A DNA stretch of 50,812 nt, from the NCBI GenBank assembly GCA_030694425.1, contig JAUXYI010000047.1:1-50812 (forward strand). The letters are read 5' to 3'. A model generated the notes under the pieces. It saw only the letters and a list, made by a program, of their open reading frames with translations, had not been told where the DNA came from and did not search any database. Shown here piece after piece: positions 9,289-25,472 of the stretch. Positions within the stretch are counted from its first letter, which is position 1. Each line of letters begins with the position of its first letter. This DNA is from Thermodesulfovibrionia bacterium (lineage in GTDB: Bacteria > Nitrospirota > Thermodesulfovibrionia > UBA6902 > BMS3Bbin08). A program made the position numbers and the translations under genes.

Positions 9289-9876
9289 ATGAAATATATT
9301 AGAAAACTTTATGATTGGGTACTGCAGTGGGCAGATACGCCTTATTCTGTTCCAGCCCTTTTTATACTTGCTTTTACCGAGTCCTCTTTTTTCCCGATTC
9401 CGCCTGATGTGCTTTTAATAACATTGTCACTGTCTTTTCCTAAAAGGGCTTTTAAATATGCTACTGTCTGTACTATTGGCTCTGTCATCGGGGGAATGTT
9501 TGGTTATTTTATAGGCTATGAACTTATGGAAATAATAGGGATGCCAATATTAAACTTTTACGGTGCAATGGATAAGTATGAACATATTCAAGTCCTTTAC
9601 ATGAAATACGACGCATGGGCAATTGGAATTGCCGGATTCACCCCGATACCTTATAAAGTATTTACAATTGCTGCTGGTGCGTTTAAAATTGACTTTTTAG
9701 TTTTTGTTCTGGCTTCAATTGCGGGGAGGGCAGGAAGATTTTTTCTCGTGTCAGCTATTATCTATATTTTTGGCTCCCCAATAAAAAATTTTATAGATAA
9801 ATATTTTAATCTCTTGACATTTGCTTTCTTTGCGCTCCTGATACTTGGTTTTTTAGTAATAAAGTATGTGCTTTAG
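9289..9876 (+). CDS. VTT/DedA-like (YqaA family) inner-membrane protein
   Basis: The protein has 195 residues from the ATG at 9289; an upstream TTG at 9244 would overlap the TPR gene. It has four to five membrane helices. The family's re-entrant motif 'FTESSFFPIPPDVLLI' is near residue 28, and 'GFTPIPYKVFTIAAGAF' near 112 is diagnostic of the VTT/SNARE-associated domain. The family is linked to lipid scrambling or transport and membrane homeostasis. It is the second gene after the TPR protein, with a 10-base gap and no clear ribosome site. Confidence 0.8.
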   Translation: MKYIRKLYDWVLQWADTPYSVPALFILAFTESSFFPIPPDVLLITLSLSFPKRAFKYATVCTIGSVIGGMFGYFIGYELMEIIGMPILNFYGAMDKYEHIQVLYMKYDAWAIGIAGFTPIPYKVFTIAAGAFKIDFLVFVLASIAGRAGRFFLVSAIIYIFGSPIKNFIDKYFNLLTFAFFALLILGFLVIKYVL

Positions 9877-9898
9877 TGCAAACTATCTCTTAAAAAGT

Positions 9899-9998
9899 TG
9901 TCATTCCTGCGGAGGCAGGAATCCATGGTTTTTAAAAGGAACTGGTTTCCTGTTTTCACAGAAACGATGTCTGGATTCCCGCTTTCGCGGGAATGACT
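9899..9998. repeat. Facing pair of CATTCC...GGAATCCA palindromic repeats
   Basis: GTCATTCCTGCGGAGGCAGG begins the left copy and 'ctggattcccgctttcgcgg' the right, in opposite orientation. Each is itself a hairpin. It sits between the convergent VTT and ppdK genes and could act as a bidirectional terminator. Confidence 0.7.
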
Positions 9999-10036
9999 GG
10001 ACTAAAAAGTGTAAAGAGGCATTTAGGGATAAAACA

Positions 10037-12763
10037 CTATCGTTTCTTTACCTTTTCCTTAATCACTGCCTGGGCTGCTGCAAATCTTGCAATAGGAACT
10101 CTGAAAGGTGAACAACTTACATAATTAAGGCCGATGTTATGGCAGAATTCAACTGACTTTGGCTCTCCTCCGTGCTCGCCGCATATCCCCATCTTGAGAT
10201 TCTTTTTAGCCTTCCTGCCTTTTTCAACTGCAATGCGCATAAAGGCTCCCACGCCTTCGATGTCAATGGTAATAAACGGGTCGTCTTTCAATATTCCATG
10301 CTCTACATAGAAGGGCAGGAATCTTCCGGCGTCGTCTCTTGAAAGGCCATATACTGTCTGGGTAAGGTCATTTGTTCCGAATGAATAGAAGTCTGCAATA
10401 GGCGCTATCTCATCTGAGGTTACACAGGCTCTCGGCAGTTCTATCATTGTTCCTACTGTGTAAGGCACTTTTACTTTGTATTCTTTCTGAACCCCTCCTG
10501 CAACAGATACCACGAGATTTTTCATTACCTCAAGTTCTTTCACATGACCAACAAGGGGAATCATTATTTCCGGGATAACCTTTACCTTCTGTTTTGTTAG
10601 CTCGCATGCAGCTTCCATTATAGCCTGTGCCTGCATTTCGTATATTTCCGGGAATGTTACGCCAAGACGGCATCCGCGATGGCCAAGCATGGGATTAAAT
10701 TCATGGAGGGATTTATTTTTATTGTTGAGCTGGTCAAACGGCACGCCCATTTCATTTGAAAGTTCCATTAGTTCATTGTCTGTATGAGGAAGAAATTCAT
10801 GCAATGGCGGGTCAAGGAGCCTTATAGTTACAGGCAGTCCTTCCATAGCCTTAAATATGCCGATAAAGTCTCCTTTCTGCATTGGAAGGAGTTTGGCAAG
10901 TGCCTTTTTCCTTCCCTCAAGGGTATCAGAAAGTATCATTTCCCTGACTGCCTTTATCCTGTCAGGTCCAAAGAACATGTGCTCTGTTCTACAAAGACCG
11001 ATTCCTTGAGCGCCATAATTTCTTGCTACGGCAGCATCATTTGGAGTATCAGCATTTGCTCTAACTTTTAATGTCCTGACCTGGTCAGCCCATTTCATCA
11101 GTTCCTTGTACCACGGGTTATTTTCAGGGTCAACAGGCAGTAAGTTCAGCTTGCCTTCATACACTCGTCCTTTTGTTCCATTCAGTGTAATCCAGTCACT
11201 CTCTCTGATTACCCTGCCGTTGACGTGTATTTCTTTTTTCGGTAAGTCTATGTGAAGTGATGAACAGCCGACTATGCAGCATTTCCCCCATCCCCTTGCA
11301 ACAAGCGCTGCATGGCTTGTCATCCCGCCTCTTGCAGTGAGGATTGCCTCTGCAGCATGCATTCCGTGTACATCCTCAGGTGAAGTTTCATTTCTTACGA
11401 GTATTACTTTTTCGCCTCTCTTTGCCCATGCCTCTGCATCATCAGCAGTAAAAACAACTTTTCCTGTGGCGCCGCCCGGACCTGCCGGAAGCCCTTTTGC
11501 AAGTTCAACAGCTTTATTTTCCTCAGCAGGGTCAACACTCGGATGAAGAAGCTCATCTATCTGCTCAGGCTTGACACGCGAAATTGCCATTTCTTTGGTG
11601 ATTAATTTTGATTTTGCCATTTCAACTGCCATGCGTATAGCAGCCTGACCATTTCTTTTGCCAACCCTTGTCTGGAGCATCCAGAGCTTTCCATCCTCTA
11701 TGGTGAATTCAATGTCCTGCATATCCCTGTAATGCTTCTCAAGGTTTTTCTCAATGGTGAATAATTCTTTGTATAATTGCGGCATTGCTTCTTCAAGAGA
11801 GTGTAGATGCTGAGTGTCATCTGTCTTACCGTCCTTATTTACAGGATTAGGAGTTCTGATGCCTGCCACAACATCCTCGCCCTGTGCATTTGGCAGCCAT
11901 TCACCAAAAAACATGTCTTCCCCTGTTGCAGGGTTACGCGTAAAAGCAACGCCTGTGGCTGAATTATCTCCTGTATTGCCGAAGACCATGGACTGGACAT
12001 TTACTGCTGTTCCCCATTCTTCAGGGATTTTTTCAATCCTGCGGTATGACACTGCGCGTTTTCCCATCCATGACTGAAATACTGCGCCTATGCCGCCCCA
12101 TAGTTGTTCCTTATGGTCGTCCGGAAATTCTTTCTTAAGCGTCTCTTTAATGATTATTTTAAATTCGTCACAAAGTCTTTTCAGGTCATCAACAGTCATC
12201 TCAGTATCATTTTTATATCCTTTTTCTTTTTTCACCCTTTCCATTGCATGCTCAAGTCTTACACGGATGCCTTCTCCTTTAGGCTCTATGCCTGCTGCCT
12301 TTTCCATCACAACATCAGAATACATCATGAGCAGGCGGCGGTAGGCGTCATATACAAAACGTTCGTTATTTGTCTTTTTTATAATGCCGGGGATTGTTTT
12401 TGTTGTTAAACCGACATTTAATACAGTTTCCATCATTCCAGGCATGGAACTGCGCGCTCCGGAGCGCACTGAAACCAGAAGAGGGTCATTAGGGTCTCCA
12501 AATTTTTTCCCGATTATCTTTTCAACCCTTGAGAGAGCGGTATCCACCTGTTTTTTAAGTTCCTTTGGATATTTGCGGTTATTTTTGTAATAGAGGGTAC
12601 AAACCTCGGTTGTTATAGTAAATCCAGGCGGTACAGGGAGCCTTAAATCGCGGTGCCCTGCCATCTCAGCCAGGTTTGCGCCTTTGCCTCCAAGGAGATT
12701 TTTCATGCTGGTATTTCCGTCAGCTTTACCATTGCCGAAAAAATAAACATATTTTTTAGCCAT
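10037..12763 (-). CDS. ppdK: Pyruvate, phosphate dikinase
   Basis: The protein has 908 residues, full family length. It interconverts pyruvate + ATP + Pi and PEP + AMP + PPi in the cytosol. Domains in order: ATP-grasp domain ('GGKGANLAEMAG', near residue 25), swivelling phosphohistidine domain ('GGMTSHAALVARGWGKCC', His near 480), and PEP/pyruvate TIM barrel ('RTEHMFFGPDRI', 'GHRGCRLG', 'GTNDLTQ', 'GICGEHGG' with the catalytic Cys). The start ATG at 12763 has GGAGG seven bases upstream. In an organism using the acetyl-CoA pathway it fits PEP formation from pyruvate, i.e. anabolic gluconeogenesis. It stands alone and is convergent with the preceding gene. Confidence 0.97.
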   Translation of the reverse strand: MAKKYVYFFGNGKADGNTSMKNLLGGKGANLAEMAGHRDLRLPVPPGFTITTEVCTLYYKNNRKYPKELKKQVDTALSRVEKIIGKKFGDPNDPLLVSVRSGARSSMPGMMETVLNVGLTTKTIPGIIKKTNNERFVYDAYRRLLMMYSDVVMEKAAGIEPKGEGIRVRLEHAMERVKKEKGYKNDTEMTVDDLKRLCDEFKIIIKETLKKEFPDDHKEQLWGGIGAVFQSWMGKRAVSYRRIEKIPEEWGTAVNVQSMVFGNTGDNSATGVAFTRNPATGEDMFFGEWLPNAQGEDVVAGIRTPNPVNKDGKTDDTQHLHSLEEAMPQLYKELFTIEKNLEKHYRDMQDIEFTIEDGKLWMLQTRVGKRNGQAAIRMAVEMAKSKLITKEMAISRVKPEQIDELLHPSVDPAEENKAVELAKGLPAGPGGATGKVVFTADDAEAWAKRGEKVILVRNETSPEDVHGMHAAEAILTARGGMTSHAALVARGWGKCCIVGCSSLHIDLPKKEIHVNGRVIRESDWITLNGTKGRVYEGKLNLLPVDPENNPWYKELMKWADQVRTLKVRANADTPNDAAVARNYGAQGIGLCRTEHMFFGPDRIKAVREMILSDTLEGRKKALAKLLPMQKGDFIGIFKAMEGLPVTIRLLDPPLHEFLPHTDNELMELSNEMGVPFDQLNNKNKSLHEFNPMLGHRGCRLGVTFPEIYEMQAQAIMEAACELTKQKVKVIPEIMIPLVGHVKELEVMKNLVVSVAGGVQKEYKVKVPYTVGTMIELPRACVTSDEIAPIADFYSFGTNDLTQTVYGLSRDDAGRFLPFYVEHGILKDDPFITIDIEGVGAFMRIAVEKGRKAKKNLKMGICGEHGGEPKSVEFCHNIGLNYVSCSPFRVPIARFAAAQAVIKEKVKKR

Positions 12764-12993: not shown

Positions 12994-13767
12994 ATGCCAG
13001 AGGCAAAATTGAAAGTCATTCTTTTGCGTTATACGCCAGATCCAGAGGAAACCGTGGCAATGGCTGCAAAGCTTTGCTACAGCCCTTCTGATATTGAATC
13101 TCTAAAAGAGAAAATAGAGACAAAAGACCAGAAGGCATTTGTTGAGAAGCTTGTAAAAATGGGGCATATGAGCCCCATTGAACACCCATCTTTTACCTTT
13201 GCGATAGAGGGGATTTCCCGGGCTTGTTCGCACCAGCTTGTACGACACAGACTCGCATCATACAGTCAGCAGTCACAGAGGTATGTGTCAGAACACAGAG
13301 GGCAGAACACAGAACACAGAACACAGACATTCGATTATATAGTTCCTCCATCTATAGCGCAGGACAAGGAGGCGAAAAAAATATTTGAGAATTTCATGGT
13401 TGATGCACAAAAGGCATATGACATTCTTATTGAAAAATTAAATAACAAAGGGGTAAGCGGCGAGTCAGCAAATCAGGATGCACGGTTTGTTCTTCCCAAT
13501 GCCGCTGAGACAAAAATTATGGTCACAATGAATGCAAGAGAGTTATTGCACTTTTTCAGGCAGAGATGTTGTGAAAGGGCGCAGTGGGAAATAAGGCAGA
13601 TGGCGGAAGAAATGTTAAAACTTGTCAAAAAAGTTGCTCCAACTATATTTCATAAAGCAGGGCCGGGATGTCTTCATGCGCCGTGTCCTGAAGGTGAATA
13701 TTCATGTGGGAAAATAGAAGAGGTGAGGAAGAAGTACGGAGTTAAAAAGTCAAAAGGAGATGGCTAA
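12994..13767 (+). CDS. thyX: FAD-dependent thymidylate synthase
   Basis: The protein has 257 residues. It makes dTMP from dUMP using methylene-THF as carbon donor and FADH2. The ThyX signature is present: 'RHRLASYSQQSQRY' near residue 80. Also typical are 'GHMSPIEHPSFTFAIEG' and 'NARELLHFFRQRCCERAQWE'. Immediately after the signature lies an in-frame low-complexity insert, 'HRGQNTEHRTQT', encoded by ACAGAACACAG-type repeats (13290-13330) that match intergenic repeats of this genome. The core motifs before and after the insert are intact, so the enzyme is probably active. Start: ATG at 12994, with no clear ribosome site. Confidence 0.93.
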   Translation: MPEAKLKVILLRYTPDPEETVAMAAKLCYSPSDIESLKEKIETKDQKAFVEKLVKMGHMSPIEHPSFTFAIEGISRACSHQLVRHRLASYSQQSQRYVSEHRGQNTEHRTQTFDYIVPPSIAQDKEAKKIFENFMVDAQKAYDILIEKLNNKGVSGESANQDARFVLPNAAETKIMVTMNARELLHFFRQRCCERAQWEIRQMAEEMLKLVKKVAPTIFHKAGPGCLHAPCPEGEYSCGKIEEVRKKYGVKKSKGDG

Positions 13768-14251: not shown

Positions 14252-15301
14252 TTCAATCTCGAAGTGCAACACAAGAAGAAGCGACTTCGTTTGGTGTTTT
14301 AAACCCCAGACATTTTCTGGGGCGGTTATTTATCAAAGTTTCGATCTGAGCGATGTGCTCATCTGAAATCTTACTGAAATCCGTACCCTTTGGCAAATAC
14401 CATCTAACAAGACCGTTTGTATTTTCGTTTGTACCCCTTTGCCATGAAGCATACGGGCGAGCAAAGTAGCACTTGATGCCGATAGCAGCGGTAATCTCCT
14501 GATGTCCAGCATTCTCTGATCCGTTGTCCATGGTTAAAGTTCTTCTGGCTTTATCGGGAAAATTGTTTAATCTGTTAACAACAGCTTTACACGTTTCAGC
14601 GGCAGATTTCCTCTGGAGCTTTGTAAGTATAAGCAGTCTGCTCTTGCGTTCAACCAGAGAACTGAGGGAGACGGTACTTTTTCTGGACACCAAACTGTCA
14701 CCCTCCCAATGCCCAAACTGTTGACGAGTCTCTACTAATGCAGGTCTTGCTTCTATCGGAATGCGATTTGGTATCTTGGTTTTTTGTGTTTTTCTGCCTA
14801 TTCCTTTCTGCTTGCGCTTCCGGTGTGCACGCCTTAAGCAATCTATTAACCCTTTTCTATCAGCAGTCTTTGAATCATAAATATACTGATAAATTGCCTC
14901 GTAACTAATGGAGAGTCCTGGATGTTCTGTTTCGATCCTCCCGGAAATCTGTTCAGGTGACCACCCTTCTTTCAACTTGCTGTGTACATATGCCAATATC
15001 TGGCTGTTTTTCAGCCGAGGACGTTTACAAGCTTCCCGCTTCCTTTGTTCTGCTCTTCCATGTGCCCTGTGCGATAGGTACAGCTTGTACTCTGAGGATG
15101 AATTCCTTCCCAACTCCCTTGAAATCGTCCCTTTGTTCCTCCCAATGACCCTGGCTATTTCACTTATTGCTTTCCCTTCTGACTTCATTACGGTTATCTT
15201 GTCTCTTTCTTCAAGGCTTAAATGATTATATCGTTTTTCCATAGACACTTAAGATAGCATTTCCCTTTCTGCTCTCCCAAGTGTTGCACTTCATTATTGA
15301 A
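14252..15301. mobile_element. Intact IS30-family insertion sequence
   Basis: Terminal inverted repeats are visible. The left end (14253-14272) and the reverse complement of the right end (15281-15300) share TCAAT, three unmatched bases, then GAAGTGCAACAC. The left repeat lies inside the last codons of the transposase. A single full-length transposase fills the element. No clear target duplication of 2-4 bases was identified by eye, so the exact ends are uncertain by a base or two. Confidence 0.85.
14253..15248 (-). CDS. IS30 family transposase
   Basis: The protein has 331 residues, the usual IS30 size, with no frame break, so the element may still move. The N-terminal helix-turn-helix is 'YNHLSLEERDKITVMKSEGK' followed by 'SEIARVIGRNKGTISREL'. 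The DDE catalytic core is 'FGHWEGDSLV' (first Asp), 'TMDNGSENAGH' (second Asp) and 'SWQRGTNENTNGLVRWYLPK' (Glu). It cuts and joins the element's ends through a circular intermediate in this family. The C-terminus 'SSCVALRD' is encoded by the terminal inverted repeat itself. Confidence 0.95.
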   Translation of the reverse strand: MSMEKRYNHLSLEERDKITVMKSEGKAISEIARVIGRNKGTISRELGRNSSSEYKLYLSHRAHGRAEQRKREACKRPRLKNSQILAYVHSKLKEGWSPEQISGRIETEHPGLSISYEAIYQYIYDSKTADRKGLIDCLRRAHRKRKQKGIGRKTQKTKIPNRIPIEARPALVETRQQFGHWEGDSLVSRKSTVSLSSLVERKSRLLILTKLQRKSAAETCKAVVNRLNNFPDKARRTLTMDNGSENAGHQEITAAIGIKCYFARPYASWQRGTNENTNGLVRWYLPKGTDFSKISDEHIAQIETLINNRPRKCLGFKTPNEVASSCVALRD

Positions 15302-15328: not shown

Positions 15329-15463
15329 GTAAAAATCATAATTGCACATGTTAAGTTGACCACTTGTTTCTTCGACGGAAAACTAATATATTAGTTTCAA
15401 TATATTAGTTTCGTCACGCAGTTAGTTTGTTTCGTCATTCCTGCGAAGGCAGGAATCCAGAGA
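15329..15463. repeat. Palindromes and repeat upstream of the GIY-YIG gene
   Basis: It holds a perfect 18-base palindrome AAACTAATATATTAGTTT (15380-15397), partly repeated at 15400-15411. The palindromic repeat 'cgtcattcctgcgaaggcag...' follows at 15433-15463, just before the start codon. A 21-base block at 15329-15349 recurs inverted at 15878-15898 with three mismatches. Confidence 0.55.
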
Positions 15464-15469
15464 TATTGA

Positions 15470-15787
15470 ATGAAGAAATTTTATGTTTATATTCTTTGTA
15501 ATAAACGAAATGGCACTTTATATACAGGCATTACATCCGATCTTATTAAGCGTATTTATGAACACAAAAATAATCTGGTTGAAGGTTTTACTCAGAAACA
15601 CAATATTCACCGGTTAGTCTGGTATGAGATACATGAAACAGCAAAGACTGCCATCAGCAGAGAAAAACAAATAAAAGCATGGAAACGGCAGTGGAAACTG
15701 AGACTTATAGAGAAGAATAATTCTGAATGGAATGATTTATATGATATTATTTGTGAAGACACTGGATTCCTGCCTTCGCAGGAATGA
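15470..15787 (+). CDS. GIY-YIG domain endonuclease-like protein
   Basis: The protein has 105 residues, a single-domain GIY-YIG protein of the UvrC N-terminal type. Motifs are 'FYVYILCNKRNGTLYTGIT' (the GIY...YIG pair), 'RIYEHKNNLVEGFTQKH' and 'AISREKQIKAWKRQWKLRLI', typical of the small YhbQ/UPF0213 set. It may cut structured DNA. Its last 11 codons and stop codon are made by a copy of the palindromic repeat (15764-15790), and another copy lies just before the start. This arrangement suggests the gene spreads with, or acts on, the repeat. The start ATG at 15470 lacks a clear ribosome site. Confidence 0.85.
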   Translation: MKKFYVYILCNKRNGTLYTGITSDLIKRIYEHKNNLVEGFTQKHNIHRLVWYEIHETAKTAISREKQIKAWKRQWKLRLIEKNNSEWNDLYDIICEDTGFLPSQE

Positions 15788-15835
15788 CACAATAAGCAGG
15801 AATGACACAATAAGCAGGAATGACACAATAAAAAG
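15764..15835. repeat. Palindromic repeat at the GIY-YIG stop plus short tandem copies
   Basis: 'ctggattcctgccttcgcag' starts the full copy, which mirrors the one at 15433. It is followed by three tandem copies of an 18-base unit containing AGGAATGACACAATA. They look like slipped copies of the repeat's right end. Confidence 0.75.
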
Positions 15836-15977: not shown

Positions 15978-16418
15978 TTATTCTCTTAATCTTTGATAAT
16001 CCTCTATCCACTTTACAAAACTGAAGTGATGTTTGAGACTATTGAAGAGTTTTTTATCGGCTGTCAGGAATGGGATATGCTTTGATTCAGCAACAGCTAT
16101 ATATGCTCCGTCATATGCGCTTAAGTGATGTTTTGTAGAGATATCAAATATTCTGTCTTTCAATGGTTCAATATCCTCTCTGGCAATCTCGATTCCGAGT
16201 ATTTCATCCATCAGTTCTTTTGCCCTTTCTTTTGGGAAACGCGCCATCCTTGCGGCAACGAGACAGGCATTGATTATTTCATAAGTAATAAGGTTTGGCG
16301 CATGAAATGTAACAGCCCCCCTTGCGTAATCGCTGATAAGATTCTGTGCTTCTGCATGGCCTGTTTCATCAGGGAAATAAGCTTTCAATAAAACTCCTGA
16401 GTCAATCGTTATAATCAT
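15978..16418 (-). CDS. vapC: VapC-type PIN domain toxin
   Basis: The protein has 146 residues. It is a PIN ribonuclease: 'TIDSGVLLKAYFPDE' gives the first acidic residue (Asp6), 'LITYEIINACL' the conserved Glu, 'LSAYDGAYIAVAES' and 'FLTADKKLF' the remaining Asp ligands for magnesium. Toxins of this family cleave tRNA or rRNA when free of antitoxin. Its ATG overlaps the antitoxin stop by four bases, so it is translationally coupled. Part of this gene's 3' half (15996-16123) is duplicated at 24326-24453. Confidence 0.9.
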   Translation of the reverse strand: MIITIDSGVLLKAYFPDETGHAEAQNLISDYARGAVTFHAPNLITYEIINACLVAARMARFPKERAKELMDEILGIEIAREDIEPLKDRIFDISTKHHLSAYDGAYIAVAESKHIPFLTADKKLFNSLKHHFSFVKWIEDYQRLRE

Positions 16419-16716: not shown

Positions 16717-16797
16717 ATTTCCTTACAAAGTCAAATGAGCTTTTTTACGAGATGAGACCTTCTTCTTACTGTTTGGAGAAGGGTTGCTCTTTCTACA

Positions 16798-16962
16798 TCA
16801 GGACTTCTTTGACGTTACTGCATGAAAGGGGCTATATATCCTCTGAACATTGGTGCTGCCGCATTTAGGGCATTTTAGAATTTCTTCGTTTTTTTCTTTT
16901 AAAGAGATGTAAATGATAAAGTTTTCATTGCACTTAAGACATTTGTATTCATAAGCTGGCAT
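16798..16962 (-). CDS. FmdB-family zinc-ribbon protein
   Basis: The protein has 54 residues: 'MPAYEYKCLKCNENFIIYIS' and 'EILKCPKCGSTNVQRIYSPF'. Two CxxC pairs and the 'YEYKC' start are typical of the FmdB/CxxC regulatory protein family (PF09723), which has been linked to C1 metabolism regulation. AGGAGG lies ahead of the ATG at 16962. It lies next to cooC, which may reflect a C1 role, but that is inference. Confidence 0.75.
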   Translation of the reverse strand: MPAYEYKCLKCNENFIIYISLKEKNEEILKCPKCGSTNVQRIYSPFHAVTSKKS

Positions 16963-17108: not shown

Positions 17109-17876
17109 ATGGCATATGTAATAGCGCTTGCAGGAAAAGGCGGCACGGGCAAGACAACAATTGCTGCCCTTACAATCCGCTACCTTATTGAGAAAAGGAA
17201 AAAAGCAATTCTTGCAGTTGATGCAGATAGCAATTCCTGTCTTAATGAGGCTCTTGGAGTTCCTGTGCATGCGACCATAGGGCAGTTGCGAGAGGAATCC
17301 CTTGCCACTGTCCGCAGCGGCGCTGAACGACCGGGCGGCATGAGCATGGAACAATTGTTTGACTATCAGGTTCAGCAGGCAATCATTGAGTCAAGGGGTT
17401 TTGATTTGCTGGTTATGGGAAGACCCGAGGGTCCCGGGTGCTACTGCGCTGCCAACAATATAATCCGAAAATATACTGACATGCTTTCAGAAAAATATTC
17501 TTATGTTGTAATAGACAACGAGGCAGGAATGGAGCACCTGAGCAGGAGAACAACGCATAAAGTTAATCTCATACTTATTGTCAGCGATCCTACACAGAAA
17601 GGCATCAGCACCGCAAGAAGGATAAATAATTTAATTGATGAACTTGCGCTTGAAATTGACAGAAGAGTCCTTATTATTAACAGGGCCTCTGATGAAGAGT
17701 TTGCTAAATTAAAGGAAGGAGTTAAAGGTCTTAATTTTGAAATTGTCAACTCTATGCCCGAGGACAAAAATATTTTCCAGTTTGACCTTACCGGGAAGCC
17801 TGTTTTTGAGCTTCCGCCTGACTCCTTTGCTGTAAAGTCATTATTCGGGTTATTGGATTTCCTCAAAATTTCGTAA
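17109..17876 (+). CDS. cooC: CooC/AcsF-family CO dehydrogenase maturation ATPase
   Basis: The protein has 255 residues, a MinD-type deviant Walker ATPase. The P-loop 'GKGGTGKTT' is at residues 9-17, and the metal-binding CxC sits in 'GPGCYCAANNIIR' near residue 115. 'YVVIDNEAGMEHLSRRTT' is the switch region. CooC/AcsF helps load nickel into the CO dehydrogenase C-cluster or the acetyl-CoA synthase A-cluster. It lies about 7 kb upstream of the acs operon. A second, decayed cooC tail sits directly before acsE (24485-24535), so cooC probably once adjoined that operon. The start ATG at 17109 has a weak ribosome site. Confidence 0.92.
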   Translation: MAYVIALAGKGGTGKTTIAALTIRYLIEKRKKAILAVDADSNSCLNEALGVPVHATIGQLREESLATVRSGAERPGGMSMEQLFDYQVQQAIIESRGFDLLVMGRPEGPGCYCAANNIIRKYTDMLSEKYSYVVIDNEAGMEHLSRRTTHKVNLILIVSDPTQKGISTARRINNLIDELALEIDRRVLIINRASDEEFAKLKEGVKGLNFEIVNSMPEDKNIFQFDLTGKPVFELPPDSFAVKSLFGLLDFLKIS

Positions 17877-17888
17877 CCTAACTACGGG

Positions 17889-18004
17889 GTCTGTTTATAA
17901 ACAGCATAATATGGCCAGCTTGTCATGGTGAGATTGTCGAACCATGAGAATTACTCACCCTTCGACAGGCTCAGGGTGACATACAGCGATATTTATAAAC
18001 AGAC
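17889..18004. repeat. Inverted-repeat bounded element before the first GACA array
   Basis: GTCTGTTTATAAA (17889-17901) and TTTATAAACAGAC (17992-18004) are perfect 13-base inverted repeats. Inside is a GTCATGGTGAG...CAGGGTGAC palindromic repeat. It resembles a miniature inverted-repeat element. Confidence 0.5.
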
Positions 18005-18096
18005 AGACAGACAGACAGACAGATTTAAGGCTTTATCAGAGAAATAATAGAATTACAAAAGGGTGTTCCGAAACGTCGGAACGCCCTTTTTGTTTT
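18000..18096 (+). repeat. GACA microsatellite plus conserved leader and terminator, copy 1
   Basis: Six CAGA units (18000-18023) are followed by TTTAAGGCTTTATCAGAG and a hairpin terminator (stem 18061-18071 with 18076-18086, then T-run). The same module with 17 CAGA units is at 20404-20545. It may be a small-RNA-like or terminator cassette. Confidence 0.6.
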
Positions 18097-18106
18097 ATCA
18101 AGGTCG

Positions 18107-18341
18107 TCATTCCCGCCTGCCCCTGCACCGTCTTGGTGCGGGGCTTGTCGGGAATCTATGTTTTACTTTATCATTCTCGTGCAAACGGGAATCCAGATTT
18201 TTCGTCCCCTCTATCAAGAGGGGATTAAGGGGTGTGTAAGAAGGGTAAATATTTTGAAATAACGAAATGAAAGCGTTTTCATTTTGGAGATTGAGCGATG
18301 ATGGCGGTTATTTCTTCTAATATTTCAGAGAAAGGCATTAA
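18107..18341. other. Intergenic repeats
   Basis: It contains decayed CATTCCCGC...GGGAATC palindromes (18107-18200) and a 'cccctctatcaagagggg' stem (18208-18226). A short minus-strand ORF (MPFSEILEEITAIIAQSPK, about 18277-18336) follows the broken antitoxin below and may be the truncated start of its partner toxin. Confidence 0.4.
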
Positions 18342-18594
18342 TCATTTAATAAGAGGTTGGAGGGCTTTTTTAGTATGCATCCAGTTTGAAAGGAGTTTAT
18401 GAAAGGCATACCAGTCAAAAAAATCTCTTTCATCACCAAGTGCGCCCTTTTTAAATTTTGCAAGATAAGGATGCAGTGGTCATTTTGTATTTTTCCTCAA
18501 GAACCTTTATCTGCCTCTTATAGAAATTTATGGTAGTGGAGCAGATATTAAATTCTCTCTCAAGGGATTCTTTGATTTCAGCAGTAATAGTCAT
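18342..18594 (-). pseudogene. Frameshifted antitoxin-like gene
   Basis: The first frame reads 'MTITAEIKESLEREFNICST' and 'INFYKRQIKVLEEKYKMTT'. After a one-base shift near 18470 the next frame continues 'YLAKFKKGALGDERDFFDWY' and 'KLLSNWMHTKKALQPLIK'. Joined, this is a coherent helical protein of about 83 residues, of a type often found as the first gene of two-gene toxin-antitoxin pairs. A ribosome site (GAGG) precedes the ATG. It is a pseudogene unless the shift is a sequence error. The partner seems truncated. Confidence 0.6.
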
Positions 18595-18819
18595 ATAGAT
18601 TTACCTCTTTTAGAAAGAATAACGTAAAGATATCAGAGATGTCAAAAATTATGAGAGGCTCTTGCAAAAGTCTTTATCTGTCATTCCCGCATGCCTTTAG
18701 CGGGAATCCAGTGGTTTATAGTCTCTGGATGCCCGATAAAGGTCCTCGGGCATGACGGACAAAGCTGACATTTGTAAGTACTTGTAAATATTTTGAAATA
18801 AAAAAATAGGAGGGCTGAC
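18595..18819. repeat. Intergenic with CATTCCCGC/GGGCATGAC palindromic repeats
   Basis: 'tgtcattcccgcatgccttt' (from 18679) and 'ctggatgcccgataaaggtc' (from 18724) form a facing pair. No gene is seen. Confidence 0.55.
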
Positions 18820-19107
18820 ATGTTTAAACGAATATTATTTCTTATCACAGCCACTGCCGTTGCAGGCGTAATTGACCTGCCGCAGACAGGACAGACGAAG
18901 TGCTATGACACCAATTATGACACCAATGGAGTTGAGATTCCCTGTGCAGGCACAGGGCAGGATGGGGAAATAAGGGTAGGGGTTTTTGGCCTAATTTTTT
19001 TATTGACAACTACTGGAGATAGCTGGTTAACTAATATCAACCAGTCTGAAAGATTAATTAATCCAATTGACAATAAAAAATGGAGGTTTTATGGGGAAGA
19101 CAGTTGA
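18820..19107 (+). pseudogene. Truncated DUF1566/Lcl-like secreted protein fragment
   Basis: The ORF has 95 codons with good ribosome site AGGAGG. The N-terminus is a signal peptide, 'MFKRILFLITATAVAGVI', followed by 'LPQTGQTKCYDTNYDTNGVE' and 'IPCAGTGQDGEIRVGV'. That is the conserved opening of Lcl/DUF1566 proteins. After residue 60 the match is lost and the frame runs into the next gene, so it is likely the N-terminal remnant of a larger gene. The duplicated 'YDTN' suggests slippage. Confidence 0.55.
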
Positions 19108-19330
19108 TCTGATTATAAAGGAAGCGTTGCAATTGTCAGATGCTGAACGGGCCCGGATTATAGATTAATTATTGACCACATTTGAAGTTGAAAAAGACAA
19201 TGATGTTGATGCTGCATGGGCGGAGGAAGTTGAAAAGAGGGCTTCAGAAATTGCAGAGGGGAAGGTTGTGCCTGTAATTTGGGATGAGGTCAGAAAAAGA
19301 GCCATCCATAAAGTTCATGGCAAAAATTAA
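19091..19330 (+). pseudogene. Addiction-module (DUF2281-type) antitoxin with an internal stop
   Basis: ATG at 19091 after TGGAGG reads 'MGKTVDLIIKEALQLSDAER' and 'ARIID', then TAA at 19166-19168. The same frame continues 'LLTTFEVEKDNDVDAAWAEE' and 'VEKRASEIAEGKVVPVIWDE' to 19330. This matches the small 'addiction module protein' antitoxin family (PF09720), broken by one nonsense codon. No toxin follows directly. Confidence 0.7.
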
Positions 19331-19353
19331 TATCTCTTACAGGAGGACAAAAC

Positions 19354-19602
19354 ATGCATACTAAAGCCTTAAAGATAACTACTATTTATAAAGAATTGGC
19401 TATGCTTCCAGATGAGAAACTGGATGAGGTAAAAGATTTTATAGACTTTATCGGCTACAAATTTGCAGCTAAAAAAAAACATGTAGTTAAACTAAAAGGT
19501 ATTTGGGCTGGTAAAGGCTTTGAGAAAATATCAAACCTTGATACAGAACTTAAATCTATAAAAAAAGAGTTGGCCGGGTCAATCCTCAAAAAGAAGACAT
19601 AA
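19354..19602 (+). CDS. Antitoxin of a PIN-type toxin-antitoxin pair
   Basis: The protein has 82 residues. 'YKELAMLPDEKLDEVKDFID' and 'FIGYKFAAKKK' fit the DUF2281/VapB-like family, whose members precede PIN toxins. AGGAGG precedes the ATG. It stops three bases before the PIN gene, so the pair is one operon. The lysine-rich C-terminus would contact the toxin. Confidence 0.7.
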   Translation: MHTKALKITTIYKELAMLPDEKLDEVKDFIDFIGYKFAAKKKHVVKLKGIWAGKGFEKISNLDTELKSIKKELAGSILKKKT

Positions 19603-19605
19603 CGC

Positions 19606-19995
19606 ATGGAATATCTCGCTGACACAGTAACAATAATCCGTTATTTTGCCAAAACAGGGAAGATTGGGAAAAGAGCAAAGGCAATATTAAACGATGCTGA
19701 GAAAGGGAAGCACCGCATTTTTATTTCAGTATTATCTCTGGTGGAGATAATGTATTTATCTCAGAAGATGAGAATCAGTATCAACCTTGCAGAAACTTTA
19801 ACGATCATTAATAATTCAGAAAATTATATGATTGTAGATTTGAATTCCCATATTGTTCTGTTTGCTGAATCAATCAGGTTTCCCGAACTTTTTGACAGGC
19901 TGATTTTAGCAACCGGGGAATATCTCGGAGTGCCTGTAATTACTCCTGACGAAGAGATTCACGAATTAGAAAGTGTAGAGGCTATCTGGCAATAA
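19606..19995 (+). CDS. VapC-type PIN domain toxin (second pair)
   Basis: The protein has 129 residues. The PIN residues are 'YLADTVTIIRYF' (Asp6), 'SVLSLVEIMYLS' (Glu), 'PELFDRLILATGEYLGVP' (Asp) and 'VITPDEEI' (Asp). It is a predicted RNase toxin cotranscribed with the preceding antitoxin. It is intact, unlike the neighbouring broken antitoxins. Confidence 0.85.
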   Translation: MEYLADTVTIIRYFAKTGKIGKRAKAILNDAEKGKHRIFISVLSLVEIMYLSQKMRISINLAETLTIINNSENYMIVDLNSHIVLFAESIRFPELFDRLILATGEYLGVPVITPDEEIHELESVEAIWQ

Positions 19996-20081
19996 ATACA
20001 CATTAGCGGGTGAGTACTGACTATTTACAAAAGGGGACGTTATGGGGAAGCGAAAAAGGGGTTTTGAGAATCGGATAGTCT

Positions 20082-20155
20082 TTTGTCGGATTTCCTTACA
20101 TGCTTCTTTGAAAATTCCGGTTTTCGCCTGTTTTTATGTAAGGAGTTCCGACAAA
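20082..20155. ncRNA. Long hairpin of unknown function
   Basis: The left arm starts TTTGTCGGA and ends CCTTACAT; the right arm (20136-20155) is its complement with two mismatches in 20 pairs. The loop of about 34 bases contains a smaller CCGG-centred stem. It could be an RNA structure or an insertion-element end. No open frame is present. Confidence 0.35.
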
Positions 20156-20251
20156 CCAATGGTTATTAAATGTCATCTCTAAAAATTTTTCAATAAAATA
20201 AATGGGTTATAATTTTGGCATTAAAATTGCTTGAAAATATAGATATATAGA

Positions 20252-20376
20252 GTGTCATTCCTGCGAAGGCAGGAATCCAGAAACATTAAGCTATATTACA
20301 ATACAACTTTCTGGATTCCGCATCAAGTGCGGAATGACACCGCTAAAATGGATTCCTGCCTTCGCAGGAATGACTG
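20252..20376. repeat. Three palindromic CATTCC/GGAATGAC repeat copies
   Basis: TTCCTGCGAAGGCAGGAA-centred copy at 20255-20283, 'tctggattccgcatcaagtg' copy from 20311, and an inverted copy from 20350. This cluster lies just before the long GACA array. Confidence 0.75.
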
Positions 20377-20402
20377 AAAAAATCCTATGGCAAGCATTTT
20401 GC

Positions 20403-20545
<143 letters not shown>

Positions 20546-20909
20546 AGTTAAGAAGTTATCCCCTCTATCAAGAGGGACAGGGGTGTGTGCCTTTTCTTTG
20601 GCAAACCAGGGGAAGGGGAGATTTTGTAAGTGGTGGTGTCATTCCTGCCCCGTATCAAGTATGGGGTGAAGGCAGGAAACTATAAAGGAAATAGATTCCC
20701 GCTTTCGTGAGAATCCTCATGCCGACAAGTCGGCATAAAGGAGCATGAAAATTGTGTAATCGTCACTCCTGCGAAAGCAGGAGTCCAGAAACCATATTCT
20801 CTGGATTCCGCATCAAGTGCGGAATGACAGACAAAATGCCCATTTTTGGGTCAATGACGACAAAGAAAATATTTTACGGTAATCATTCTTAATAAAAAAG
20901 GAGGGGAAA
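20546..20909. repeat. Intergenic repeats before the M23 peptidase
   Basis: 'tcccctctatcaagaggg' stem (about 20559-20577), a CATTCCTGCC...GGCAGGAA copy with an inner inverted repeat (20637-20680), and a facing pair at 20760-20838. No gene is seen. Confidence 0.6.
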
Positions 20910-22829
20910 ATGACCACACAATTTAAAACATTCAGTACATGCTTATTTTTTTCTTTATTTGTATTTTTATTTAGTGCAACTATTGTAAGTTCGAATAATT
21001 TTGACGGAATGCAAATGCCAGTTGAAGGAATGTTAATTGATTACAATGGTTGTCCTACAGAAAATTCGGAAAATTTCAAATACTCTGTAGTATGGTCAGG
21101 TAAATATTTGGGATCACAAAGATGTGAAGGTAGTGGCAGACATCCGGGTGTAGATATCCCGCTTCCAGCAGGAACACCATTATACGCAATAGCTAATGGA
21201 ATTATAGTGGGTATACAACGAACAGGAGTGCAGGATCCAAATGGAGGGTGGGGAGCACATTTGATAATTAGACACGATAACATCCAAGATGTTGGTATTA
21301 TTTATTCAATTTACGCACATATGCAGAGTAATAGCATTCCATCTGATATAGATGTAGGCGATGAGGTCTCAAGGGGAGAATTTATTGGAAAATCAGGAAA
21401 TACTGGAAAGACATTTCCCATAGGAGGCGGTTATCATTTACATTTTCAAATAGATAAAGACATGGGAGGAAATCATCCCTATTGGTGTGGAGATCCCGAT
21501 CTCACACCTGATCCTAACAATCCATGTGTCATTAACAAAACCCATAATCCTATACCTCTTATAAAGGCTTATCCTCCTACTTATTATTCACCTACTCGCT
21601 TTATGGATTTTGAAGATAGTACGGATGGCACTGTTATTCGTAGTAAAATCCCTGGCTTGTTTTTTACTACTACTCAGGGCTATGACTGGATTTATGGGGA
21701 TTGGCGAACAAGAAAGTATAACGGTCCTTACCCTAATGGACGTTATTATAGCAATGGCAATTTTTTTGCTTGGTTAGGTCCAAATCAAGGAACAGGGAGA
21801 ATCGATTTTATAGGAGCTACGGCATCTTCTCTATCAGTCTGGACAAGCACTTACTCTGGAATAACCATGGATGCATATGATGCCACTTACAAAAAAATTG
21901 CTAGCAGTGGTTGGGCTACTAATAACCTCGATACTGGTAAAATGACTAAATTAACTGTATCTGCCCCCAATATGGCATATGTTCTAATTCATGATTCAGG
22001 TAATTATTGGCTCATTGATGATCTCGAAGTAGGGGATCTTTTAGCCGAATCCAGAGCATATTTACCAGATAATTTTACGGTTAAATCTGAATACTTGAAT
22101 ACCATAAACCAAAGCCAGTCAATATGGAAAAGCTTTTTTAATAAGATCAGACAAACAATTAAGATTATCTTGGGGTGGGGCGGTAGTGAGTTATCCATTC
22201 GAATATATAGACCAGATGGGAGCCTCTATGAAGAACATCAATCAAATACCCCTCCTATCATAGTAACTATGCCAGATGCAGACCCGGGAGAATGGCAATT
22301 TGAAGTCAGTGCCATTAATGTACCTCATGATAACTATCCTTTTGCTTTAGTTGTTGGTATACCTGATTCAGATAGTGATGGGATAGCTGATCAGGATGAT
22401 AATTGTCCAAATACATCCAACCCTGACCAGACCGACACCGATGGTGACGGCATAGGTGATGCCTGTGAGGCAGTCAGAATCTCCGGCGGAGCCTATAATT
22501 TCCCGCAAACTACAGCCTACAAAGCAAGTTTCTCAATGGATGTTACAAAGGCATCTTCACTTACAGGATGGCTTAAGTATTATTATGCAAAGACGAGGAT
22601 GAATTTTGTAAGCGCTGTCATTACAGGCATATCTATATCTGGGAATACAGCGATAATAAGCGGAACAGGGACAGTGAATGGTGTTGGAGGATACACATTC
22701 ATAGCAACCATAACTGACAATGTGCCTGATAGTTTTAGCATTACAATAAGAAAATCGGATGGAACTGTGTATTATTCAGCGCCGTTAAAGGCGGCGAGCG
22801 GCAGTAGCTTGAAGATAACGTTGTTATGA
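20910..22829 (+). CDS. Secreted M23 peptidase with thrombospondin type 3 repeats
   Basis: The protein has 639 residues. A signal peptide is visible at residues 1-30 ('LFFSLFVFLFSATIVSS'). The LytM/M23 domain has 'GRHPGVDIPLPAGTPLYAIA' (His and Asp zinc ligands) and 'GGYHLHFQI' (HxH), so it should be an active metallo-endopeptidase on peptidoglycan or peptides. The middle (about 225-390) looks like a carbohydrate-binding-type beta domain. A calcium-binding TSP3 segment, 'DSDGIADQDDNCPNT' and 'DTDGDGIGDACE', lies near 490-520. The C-terminal about 110 residues form another beta domain. GGAGGGG precedes the ATG. It lies alone between repeats; horizontal gain is possible but not shown. Confidence 0.85.
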   Translation: MTTQFKTFSTCLFFSLFVFLFSATIVSSNNFDGMQMPVEGMLIDYNGCPTENSENFKYSVVWSGKYLGSQRCEGSGRHPGVDIPLPAGTPLYAIANGIIVGIQRTGVQDPNGGWGAHLIIRHDNIQDVGIIYSIYAHMQSNSIPSDIDVGDEVSRGEFIGKSGNTGKTFPIGGGYHLHFQIDKDMGGNHPYWCGDPDLTPDPNNPCVINKTHNPIPLIKAYPPTYYSPTRFMDFEDSTDGTVIRSKIPGLFFTTTQGYDWIYGDWRTRKYNGPYPNGRYYSNGNFFAWLGPNQGTGRIDFIGATASSLSVWTSTYSGITMDAYDATYKKIASSGWATNNLDTGKMTKLTVSAPNMAYVLIHDSGNYWLIDDLEVGDLLAESRAYLPDNFTVKSEYLNTINQSQSIWKSFFNKIRQTIKIILGWGGSELSIRIYRPDGSLYEEHQSNTPPIIVTMPDADPGEWQFEVSAINVPHDNYPFALVVGIPDSDSDGIADQDDNCPNTSNPDQTDTDGDGIGDACEAVRISGGAYNFPQTTAYKASFSMDVTKASSLTGWLKYYYAKTRMNFVSAVITGISISGNTAIISGTGTVNGVGGYTFIATITDNVPDSFSITIRKSDGTVYYSAPLKAASGSSLKITLL

Positions 22830-22855
22830 AAGAGGGCGTAGGGATACAAAGGAAA

Positions 22856-23035
22856 GATTCTGGACAAGCCAGAATGACAGAAAAATTCTGGATTCCCGCT
22901 TATCCCGAAGTATCGGGACGGGAATGACAGGAAAGATGGGAACACACCCCCTAACCCCCTCTTAATAGAGGGGAATTAAAACGTCCCACTTTGAAAAAGG
23001 TCTATGACTCGTAGAGGGGATGAAGGGGGATTTTA
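22856..23035. repeat. Intergenic palindromic repeats
   Basis: 'attctggattcccgcttatc' opens a GGGAATGACAG copy (to about 22931). It is followed by a 'ccccctctta...agagggg' stem (22945-22975) and 'tcgtagaggggatgaaggggg'-like G-runs. No gene is seen. Confidence 0.55.
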
Positions 23036-23068
23036 TTGAAACTAATTTTTGAAAGGAGAAAAATAAAA

Positions 23069-23635
23069 ATGAAAACATTTAAGACACTATGCTTAAGTAT
23101 TATCACAGCAACCGTTTTAATTTTTAGCAGTATTGCCCATGCAGGGGTTCCGCCAACAGCAGATCTTCTCTACAACGAGATTGACAAAGGCACGGGATGG
23201 TGGCAGTATGACTATACGCTTTTTAATACATCCCCAATTGGACATGTTGGCATTGACCTCTATGATTTATTTTTATACTTTGACCCGTTAGCATCGCTTA
23301 ATGTCTTATCCATGCCTTCAGGATGGGACTGGACAGACGGGGCTGGTTTTATTGATGTATTTTCAATGAATCCCGGCGCACCGCCTATTGGGACAGACAT
23401 AGCTCCTAACTCATCTCTTGGCGGATTTAGCTTTGAGTTTGACTATCAGGCAGGGATGCTTCCATTTGATGCTACTTTTGTAAATCCATCTGATATTGAC
23501 AATCCTTATATGTTTAGTGGCACAAGTGCACCAACCTCTTCCATCCCTGAACCTTCAACAATACTTCTGCTTGGCAGTGGATTATTAGGTCTGGCAATGA
23601 TTAGAAAAAGAAGGATGGTCAGTCCCGACTATTGA
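23069..23635 (+). CDS. PEP-CTERM sorting-domain protein
   Basis: The protein has 188 residues. The ATG at 23069, ten bases after GAAAGGAG, is preferred over 23036. A signal peptide ends at 'SSIAHA'. The C-terminus 'SIPEPSTILLLGSGLLGLAM' followed by IRKRR is a full PEP-CTERM signal: PEP motif, hydrophobic helix, basic tail. It would be processed by an exosortase and placed in the extracellular matrix. The middle (aromatic, Asp/Gly-rich) has no recognised domain. No exosortase lies in the window. Confidence 0.85.
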   Translation: MKTFKTLCLSIITATVLIFSSIAHAGVPPTADLLYNEIDKGTGWWQYDYTLFNTSPIGHVGIDLYDLFLYFDPLASLNVLSMPSGWDWTDGAGFIDVFSMNPGAPPIGTDIAPNSSLGGFSFEFDYQAGMLPFDATFVNPSDIDNPYMFSGTSAPTSSIPEPSTILLLGSGLLGLAMIRKRRMVSPDY

Positions 23636-23755
23636 CATTTAAGCAATATTAACTCAAAACTGAAAACAAATATAAATGCATAAACCAGCCTGACTCCACA
23701 ACCACCCCAATATACTCAATTTAACCATACTTAATTTTATAAGAAAGGAGAGACA

Positions 23756-24256
23756 ATGAGATTCTCTTACCCATTAAAATCTTTTTGTGTTCTCAGTATT
23801 GTAGTGCTTCTTTGTTCGTGCTCTATACTGAAATTAAGTGGCAAAATGACACGAGTAACTGGAGAGGCAATGGAAGATTATTCAAAAGAGAATGATGGCG
23901 CTATAGGAAAGATGGCAGGATTTGGCGGACGCATTAATAAATCTGTTGGTAGTACGGTAGAAGATATAGCTACCAAAAAAGAAGAAGGAAAATCGGTATC
24001 ATTGGGAGAAGCGAATAAGCAGGTAATTAGTTCAGCATATGATGCGGCAAAAGGCGAGCCAGCGAATGACAAGAAAACCATTATCAAGGCGCAGAAACGT
24101 TTGCAAGAACTCGGTTTTTATTCCGGTACAGCAGATGGTGTTTTAGGCAAGAAGACAGTATCTGCCATAGAAAAATATCAACAAAAAAATGGACTAAAGA
24201 TTACTAAGGCACTTGATAAAGATACCTTGGCGTCTTTAGGAATCAATGATAAGTAG
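23756..24256 (+). CDS. Lipoprotein with peptidoglycan-binding domain
   Basis: The protein has 166 residues. The lipobox is 'VVLLCSCSILKL' (Cys near 23). The C-terminus carries a PG_binding_1 domain: 'IIKAQKRLQELGFYSGTADG' and 'LGKKTVSAIEKYQQKNGLKI'. It would anchor to the outer membrane and grip cell-wall peptide. The middle region is helical and charged. AAGGAGAG precedes the ATG. Its job beyond wall binding is unknown. Confidence 0.85.
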   Translation: MRFSYPLKSFCVLSIVVLLCSCSILKLSGKMTRVTGEAMEDYSKENDGAIGKMAGFGGRINKSVGSTVEDIATKKEEGKSVSLGEANKQVISSAYDAAKGEPANDKKTIIKAQKRLQELGFYSGTADGVLGKKTVSAIEKYQQKNGLKITKALDKDTLASLGINDK

Positions 24257-24325
24257 GTTCTATTGAGGTTGAACCTCCATAATTAAATTGAGGGAGGTTG
24301 GTGGAATTTAATCTTTTAAAATCGG

Positions 24326-24453
24326 ATAATCCTCTATCTACTTTACAAAACTGAAGTGATGTTTGAGACTATTGAAGAGTTTTTTATCGGCTGTCAGGAA
24401 TAGCATATGCTTTGATTCAGCAACAGCTATATATGCTCCGTCATATGCGCTTA
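24326..24453 (-). pseudogene. Duplicated 3' fragment of vapC
   Basis: This 128-base stretch is nearly identical to 15996-16123, part of the vapC gene at 15978-16418 (constant offset of 8330 bases, only a few mismatches). It then joins, without the rest of vapC or the antitoxin, to a copy of 16753-16782. It is a nonfunctional remnant. Confidence 0.9.
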
Positions 24454-24484
24454 TGAGACCTTCTTCTTACTGTTTGGAGAAGGT

Positions 24485-24535
24485 TCAGTAAAATCATTAT
24501 TTGGATTACTGGACTACATCAAAATTCCGCTGTAA
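24485..24535 (+). pseudogene. cooC: Remnant of a second cooC 3' end
   Basis: The sequence reads 'SVKSLFGLLDYIKIPL' then stop, matching the cooC C-terminus 'AVKSLFGLLDFLKIS' at 17830-17876. It lies 149 bases ahead of acsE. No upstream cooC coding sequence remains. Confidence 0.85.
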
Positions 24536-24581
24536 TTATTATTTAAAATTCTTATTTTAAAATTAAGCCCTGTAAAAAATC

Positions 24582-24611
24582 TTTACTAACAAATTTAGCA
24601 TATGGTATTAT
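24582..24611 (+). promoter_or_regulatory. Candidate acs operon promoter
   Basis: TTTACT (24582-24587) and TATTAT (24606-24611) are 18 bases apart, about 70 bases before the acsE start. The match to the -35 consensus is only fair. Confidence 0.3.
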
Positions 24612-24683
24612 TAAAAACTTGTCTTTGAAGGTTTTTTTCTTGTAACCCCTGAGTAAGAATTTCTGAAAGGAGACGATATAGGG

Positions 24684-25472
24684 ATGTTAGTCATTGGAGA
24701 AAAAATAAGCATTATAGCTAAAAAGGTAAGAGAGGCTATGATGAAGCGTGACCCTAAGCCTGTTCAGGAGCTTGCGGCTGCGCAATGGAAGGCAGGGGCA
24801 CATTTCATAGATGTTAACATAGGACCTGCAGAGGAAAAGGGCGAGGATTTAATGAAATGGATGGCGGAGAGCATTCAGGAGAAGGTTCATCTGCCCCTAT
24901 GTCTTGATACAACAAACCCTTCAGCGCTTGAGGCCGGGCTTAAGGCTCATAATAACCAGTGGGGAAGGGCGCTTATTAATTCAACATCAAATGAACCTGA
25001 GAGATTTATAATGCTTGAGCTTGCAGCCAAATACAATGCGCAGGTTATAGGACTTACATTAGGAAAGGGTGGTCTGCCGGCTGATGCAGAGGAGAGATGT
25101 GCCATAGCCGCAGAAATTATGGGAAGGGCTTTAGAATACGGAGTGCCGCTCGAAGACATTTATCTTGACCCTCTAATACTTCAGGTCTGCACTATGCAGG
25201 ACCATGCGATGCATGCCCTTAAGGCAGTTAAAATGTTTCAGGAGTTAAATGACCCTCCGATGAAAACAGTTGTCGGACTCAGCAATATCTCCAACGGCGT
25301 TCCAAAGGAAATGAGGAGTTTAATAGACAGAAATTATCTGGCGCTGCTAATTTATGAGGGGCTTACAGCGGCAATAATGAATCCTCTTGATAAAGACCTG
25401 ATGGACACGCTCAAAACAGTGGAAGTTTTTGTTGGCAAAACGCTTTACGCTCATTCGTATCTTGAAACGTGA
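24684..25472 (+). CDS. acsE: Methyl-THF:corrinoid/iron-sulfur protein methyltransferase
   Basis: The protein has 262 residues, the size of Moorella AcsE. It moves the methyl group from methyl-tetrahydrofolate to the cobalt of the AcsCD corrinoid protein. It is one pterin-binding TIM barrel: 'KAGAHFIDVNIGPAEEKGED', 'LPLCLDTTNPSALEAGLKAH', 'LINSTSNEPERFIMLELAAK', 'LDPLILQVCTMQDH' and 'TVVGLSNISNGVPK'. The pterin-site Asp and Asn residues of the family are in these blocks. AAAGGAG precedes the ATG. It opens the acs operon and runs in the same direction as all genes to 38045. Confidence 0.93.
   Translation: MLVIGEKISIIAKKVREAMMKRDPKPVQELAAAQWKAGAHFIDVNIGPAEEKGEDLMKWMAESIQEKVHLPLCLDTTNPSALEAGLKAHNNQWGRALINSTSNEPERFIMLELAAKYNAQVIGLTLGKGGLPADAEERCAIAAEIMGRALEYGVPLEDIYLDPLILQVCTMQDHAMHALKAVKMFQELNDPPMKTVVGLSNISNGVPKEMRSLIDRNYLALLIYEGLTAAIMNPLDKDLMDTLKTVEVFVGKTLYAHSYLET

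What the first reader, a model, noticed from the sequence alone, without database searches (positions are those of the whole stretch)
24326..24535. Scar holding vapC and cooC tails right before the acs operon
24326-24453 is a near-copy of the vapC 3' part (15996-16123, offset 8330); then comes a copy of 16753-16782; then a diverged cooC C-terminus (24485-24535). The order vapC - spacer - cooC is the same as at 16-18 kb. So a vapC-cooC block was duplicated or recombined, and about 6.6 kb of accessory DNA now separates the intact cooC from acsE. The cooC tail is more diverged than the vapC piece, so two events or an older paralogue are possible.
Basis: partly seen in the sequence, partly recalled or inferred. 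Interest (0 to 1): 0.65.

Follow-up and report, generated by a model that had tools for sequence, protein, structure and literature searches.

The report
Remnant of a lost second cooC
Just before a carbon-fixation operon lie broken pieces of a vapC toxin gene and of a second, long-diverged copy of the nickel-enzyme maturation gene cooC, the leftover of an ordinary DNA rearrangement after which the only working cooC sits about 6.8 kb away.

Summary
24326-24453 matches vapC 15996-16123 at 125/128. 24453-24483 is identical to 16752-16782 (31 nt). 24485-24535 is a cooC C-terminus in the native position before acsE. No further copy exists in the genome.

The two cooC tails are not a gene and its decayed copy. 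They differ by dS about 1.1 and dN about 0.13, as two functional alleles would, about as far as intact cooC is from that of another genus. The vapC piece has no synonymous change and three amino-acid or stop changes, including a premature TAG, so it is a young pseudogene copy.

Relatives show the ancestral order thyX-cooC-acsE with cooC directly before acsE; none of 29 scanned carries the scar. Best account: two diverged vapC-cooC blocks recombined here (single crossover or homology-facilitated illegitimate recombination), accessory DNA came to lie between them, and the operon-side block was deleted down to 3' ends. A conserved acsE promoter-like site lies downstream of the scar, so the operon is probably unaffected. 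This is ordinary genome plasticity, though unusually readable.

The parts
24308..24325 (-). Last six codons and stop of the scar's vapC copy, diverged from intact vapC (DYPILKD* against DYQRLRE*)
   Evidence: 12/18 nt match; the YP ending is common in related vapC proteins
24326..24453 (-). vapC 3' fragment, near-identical to 15996-16123, with an in-frame TAG at a tryptophan codon
   Evidence: 125/128 identical; all three changes nonsynonymous or nonsense
24453..24483 (+). 31-nt exact copy of 16752-16782 (between vapB and fmdB)
   Evidence: 31/31 identical; only other copy in the genome is 16752-16782
24484..24535 (+). C-terminal remnant of a second cooC allele, in the native position before acsE
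   Evidence: 35/45 nt to intact cooC; dS 1.08, dN 0.13; tail plus intergenic aligns colinearly to the cooC end and spacer of G013, 74% over 195 columns
24541..24611 (+). Conserved acsE upstream region: AT-rich block 24541-24556 and promoter-like site 24582-24611
   Evidence: conserved in G001, G003, G006, G011, G013
24684..25472 (+). acsE, first gene of the acs operon
   Evidence: NCBIfam CODH/ACS methyltransferase models
17109..17876 (+). Intact cooC, the only close copy in the genome
   Evidence: CxC motif (CYC) and deviant Walker A read
16798..16962 (-). fmdB-family zinc-ribbon gene, divergent from cooC
   Evidence: TIGR02605; same divergent pair in G007 and G009
16752..16782 (+). Source-side copy of the 31-nt spacer
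15978..16418 (-). Intact vapC (PIN-domain toxin), homologue of the scar piece
   Evidence: PF01850
16415..16684 (-). vapB (Phd/YefM antitoxin), absent from the scar
   Evidence: PF02604
17877..24307 (.). Accessory DNA between intact cooC and the scar: DUF2281-PIN pair, M23 peptidase, PEP-CTERM protein, peptidoglycan-binding protein
   Evidence: no homologues of these ORFs in 20 relatives' acs neighbourhoods
12994..13767 (+). thyX, ancestral left neighbour of cooC
   Evidence: TIGR02170; directly before cooC in G003 and G006 and near it in G011

Best explanation
The scar is what remains of a second vapC-spacer-cooC block that once stood directly before acsE. Two diverged versions of this block were brought together at the locus. 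The likeliest route is homologous recombination with incoming DNA of a related lineage, either by single-crossover integration of a circle or by homology at one end and illegitimate joining at the other. This left the block duplicated, with about 6.4 kb of accessory DNA between the copies. The vapC/spacer part shared a recent common template, by gene conversion or as the crossover region. The redundant operon-side copy then lost vapB with part of vapC, and lost fmdB with nearly all of cooC, in two deletions or in one deletion with a copied 31-nt filler. The distal cooC now supplies the maturation ATPase, and the acs operon kept its own promoter. Shown: the pieces, their order, their different ages, the past selection on the cooC tail, the pseudogene state of the vapC copy, and the ancestral synteny. 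Inferred: the foreign source, the type of crossover, the order of the deletions and the promoter function.
For: Pieces and counts. The two cooC tails differ with dS 1.08 and dN 0.13, comparable to intact cooC against another genus, G013, at dS 1.17 and dN 0.08; the vapC piece has dS 0 and a new stop. The left and right edges of the scar are both diverged while the middle is near-identical, as expected of a mosaic recombinant. Native position of the tail: colinear alignment of 24486-24672 to G013 and conserved intergenic elements. Ancestral cooC-acsE adjacency. Single intact close cooC and vapC in the genome.
Against: The cooC tail is only 17 codons, so dS rests on about 6 synonymous changes. 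No same-genus genome was held, so the intermediate with two full blocks is not seen. The intact cooC groups with same-family G003 (97/89), so nothing marks it as foreign. An old tandem duplication with both copies kept for long would look the same.
Confidence: 0.62

Rival explanations
1. Old tandem duplication within the lineage: the vapBC-fmdB-cooC block duplicated in place, both copies stayed functional for a long time, the vapC/spacer part was homogenised by gene conversion, then the operon-side copy was deleted.
For: Same order and orientation of pieces in both places; the two tails share VKSLFGLLD, not seen in any relative's cooC examined; the cooC tree places the intact copy within its own family; one relative, G036, does hold two full-length cooC copies, 78% and 66% identical to the query.
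Against: G036 is the only one of 60 relatives with two close full-length copies, and dS about 1.1 would need very long co-retention of a redundant gene.
Confidence: 0.22
2. Templated-insertion scar: the native cooC was truncated by a break, and repair filled the gap by copying about 128 nt of vapC and 31 nt of spacer from the nearby intact block, which had arrived separately.
For: Junctions have almost no homology (1 nt at 24453) and the 31-nt segment is an isolated exact copy.
Against: The copied pieces keep the order and orientation of the block and sit right before a cooC tail; the vapC end 24308-24325 is homologous but diverged, which simple copying does not explain.
Confidence: 0.1
3. Integrative element in the 3' end of cooC: the element restored the cooC end and left the displaced native tail at its far end.
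For: Intact cooC up front, displaced 3' tail with mostly silent differences at the far end, accessory DNA between.
Against: No recombinase or integrase among the ORFs of 17877-24307 tested; the vapC and spacer pieces beside the tail are unexplained; relatives with widened cooC-acsE gaps have no tail.
Confidence: 0.03
4. Assembly artefact of a metagenome-type contig (strain mixture or chimera).
For: G000 is in 101 contigs with 3.35% estimated contamination; reads were not available.
Against: The junctions at 24453 and 24484 share at most a base or so between parents, so a k-mer repeat misjoin cannot easily make them; the vapC copy carries its own substitutions.
Confidence: 0.03

Closest known systems
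In-place displacement of an operon gene by a homologous copy, with a pseudogene remnant
   Same: A diverged copy of the same gene survives nearby and the former operon copy is reduced to a 3' fragment
   Different: Here both copies had the same vapC neighbour, and the donor is not identified
Single-crossover integration and homology-facilitated illegitimate recombination (PMC3240628, abstract read)
   Same: Homologous joining on one side, extra DNA between repeated copies, near-blunt joins elsewhere
   Different: Inferred from a scar only; described experimentally in competent species and at low frequency in E. coli conjugation
CooC of the CODH/ACS complex (PDB 3kje, 3kjg, 3kjh, 3kji)
   Same: Intact 17109-17876 matches over residues 5-235, E 5e-19
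   Different: The scar keeps only the last 16 codons and the stop; it cannot be functional

Membership tests
CooC nickel-enzyme maturation ATPase (intact gene) | Homology to solved CooC over most of the length | tested here: met
   3kje_A, E 5.3e-19, residues 5-235
CooC nickel-enzyme maturation ATPase (intact gene) | Deviant Walker A (GKGGTGKTT) and CxC metal motif | tested here: met
   AGKGGTGKTT and GPGCYCAANN in the translation
CooC nickel-enzyme maturation ATPase (intact gene) | Nickel-dependent activation of CODH | not testable with these tools
   needs biochemistry
Pseudogene remnant of cooC (scar) | Homology to the gene end above chance, no start or active site | tested here: met
   35/45 against next best 24-25/45; tail profile hit E 0.026, the only hit below 1 that is not part of a full cooC
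Pseudogene remnant of vapC (scar) | Truncated and carrying an in-frame stop | tested here: met
   48 codons of 146, W to TAG
Recent simple duplication of one block | Equal divergence across all duplicated pieces | tested here: not met
   3/159 against 10/45, Fisher P = 2e-5
Integrative element in a gene 3' end | Integrase within the element | tested here: not met
   no recombinase among ORFs tested in 17877-24307

The most novel reading that the evidence does not exclude
The cooC-acsE boundary in this bacterial order is a recombination hot spot at which cooC alleles and accessory DNA are swapped repeatedly while the acs operon with its conserved promoter stays put. Hints: gaps of 0.5-4.4 kb in seven other genomes and about 121 kb in G032, and G003 has a cooC of its own family's type next to acsE, acsD and acsC that group with another family.
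Probability: 0.2. Interest if true: 0.4.

Novelty: new member of a known kind. Interest (0 to 1): 0.2.

Why it matters
It is a clear, roughly dateable trace of how an accessory gene leaves a core carbon-fixation operon: an allele under selection was lost, a distant allele took over, and the operon promoter was spared. It explains the displaced cooC, but it introduces no new kind of system.

Tried and rejected
Chance similarity of the tail: rejected. Copies of the scar elsewhere in the genome: none. cooC tails before acsE in relatives with displaced cooC: none found in the up to 1.5 kb upstream of acsE or in the whole gaps of G012, G044, G019, G020 and G045. Partial cooC hits in G040, G041 and G046 lie at contig ends and could not be read as scars. 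Origin of the accessory DNA: M23 and peptidoglycan-binding proteins have only domain-level matches in relatives, and the vapBC block has no match in plasmids. Base composition of 18-24 kb is unremarkable. Trees do not show the intact cooC as foreign. Rfam gave only sub-threshold matches. The repeated GACA-terminator element at 18.0 and 20.4 kb also occurs on contig C28, so it is a small dispersed repeat and not part of the scar. Literature searches found no report of this rearrangement.

Full report
Observation. 24326-24453 matches 15996-16123 at 125 of 128 positions, 24453-24483 is identical to 16752-16782, and 24485-24529 matches the end of intact cooC, 17829-17873, at 35 of 45. The best match of the 45-mer elsewhere in the window is 24-25 of 45, so the short tail is real. 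In frame it reads SVKSLFGLLDYIKIPL and stop, against AVKSLFGLLDFLKIS and stop in intact cooC. Searching the whole genome with 24300-24545 finds the scar itself and the vapC and spacer places at 15978-16123 and 16752-16782, nothing else.

Two ages. The vapC and spacer pieces together differ at 3 of 159 positions and the cooC tail at 10 of 45 (Fisher P = 2e-5). The kinds of change differ too. The cooC tail has dS 1.08 and dN 0.13 over 15 codons, so it diverged as a working gene before it was cut; intact cooC against the cooC of G013, another genus and family, has dS 1.17 and dN 0.08. The vapC piece has no synonymous change, and its three differences are I to M, P to L and W to stop. It is therefore a young copy decaying as a pseudogene. 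The shortness of the cooC tail makes its dS rough.

Mosaic edges. Homology with vapC runs on left of 24326 to the stop codon, but weakly: 12 of 18 nt, a level reached by 0.1% of window positions. The scar ends DYPILKD, where intact vapC has DYQRLRE; several relatives' vapC proteins also have YP at this point. So both outer edges of the scar are diverged from the intact block while the middle is nearly identical. That pattern suggests recombination between two diverged blocks with a shared or converted middle. The left edge is suggestive only.

Ancestral order. Reading coordinates relatives have cooC and acsE on one contig. In 19 the gap is under 400 nt, in seven it is 0.5-4.4 kb, and in G032 it is about 121 kb. 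thyX (12994-13767) stands directly before cooC in G003 and G006 and close by in G011. The fmdB-cooC divergent pair also occurs in G007 and G009. The scar tail with its downstream spacer, 24486-24672, aligns colinearly to the end of cooC and the spacer before acsE in G013 (74% over 195 columns). So the scar tail sits in the native cooC position. A profile of the cooC C-terminus was run on the stretch upstream of acsE in 29 relatives: 14 have a full cooC there, and the other 15 show no tail; only the window has a tail without a gene. The whole cooC-acsE gaps of five relatives with widened gaps also show none.

Function now. One close cooC remains in the genome; the next homologue is 33% identical. 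It matches the solved CooC and has the CYC motif and the Walker A loop. A promoter-like site at 24582-24611 and an AT-rich block at 24541-24556, both downstream of the scar tail, are conserved in G001, G003, G006, G011 and G013. The operon therefore most likely starts there, as in relatives, and the loss of the adjacent cooC should not silence it; this is inference from conservation. An intrinsic-terminator-like site at 18057-18090 lies downstream of the intact cooC.

Mechanism. Two diverged vapC-cooC blocks at one locus with about 6.4 kb of accessory DNA between them are what single-crossover integration, or homology-facilitated illegitimate recombination (PMC3240628), would leave. The later loss of the redundant copy explains the two near-blunt joins. 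An old tandem duplication with gene conversion is the main rival; one relative, G036, shows that two full cooC copies can coexist. A templated repair scar is possible. No integrase was found in the intervening DNA. Trees place intact cooC with same-family G003, and acsD with same-family G001, so they do not tell which block is foreign.

Verdict. This is an ordinary rearrangement scar in a bacterium whose closest cooC relatives in the public collection are labelled Nitrospirae/Thermodesulfovibrionia. It is well resolved but not a new kind of system.

Noticed in passing
24541-24556 and 24582-24611: AT-rich block TATTTAAAATTCTTAT just after the cooC stop position and a promoter-like TTTACT-18-TATTAT are conserved before acsE in five relatives; possibly the regulatory region of the acs operon.
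   Followed up: partly
17978-18095 and 20406-20542, also G000 contig C28 near 54046-54070 (L167): Small dispersed repeat: GACA microsatellite, ATTTAAGGCTTTATCAGA, then an intrinsic terminator whose stem keeps pairing despite changes.
   Followed up: partly
L169 (G003) 9580-11305: cooC groups with the window's family while the adjacent acsE, acsD and acsC group with another family; a recombination breakpoint may lie in the roughly 180-nt spacer. G003 also has a second acsE on contig C13.
   Followed up: partly
15427-15460, 15762-15795, 20254-20287, 20349-20382: Near-identical palindromic repeats GTCATTCCTGCGAAGGCAGGAATCCAG flank and enter the accessory region, and could have served as recombination sites.
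   Followed up: no
19091-19330: A frame reading MGKTVDLIIKEALQLSDAERARIID, a stop, then LTTFEVEKDND...; looks like a broken addiction-module-type gene.
   Followed up: no
14253-15248: IS30-type transposase (HTH_38 and rve domains) between thyX and the vapBC block.
   Followed up: no
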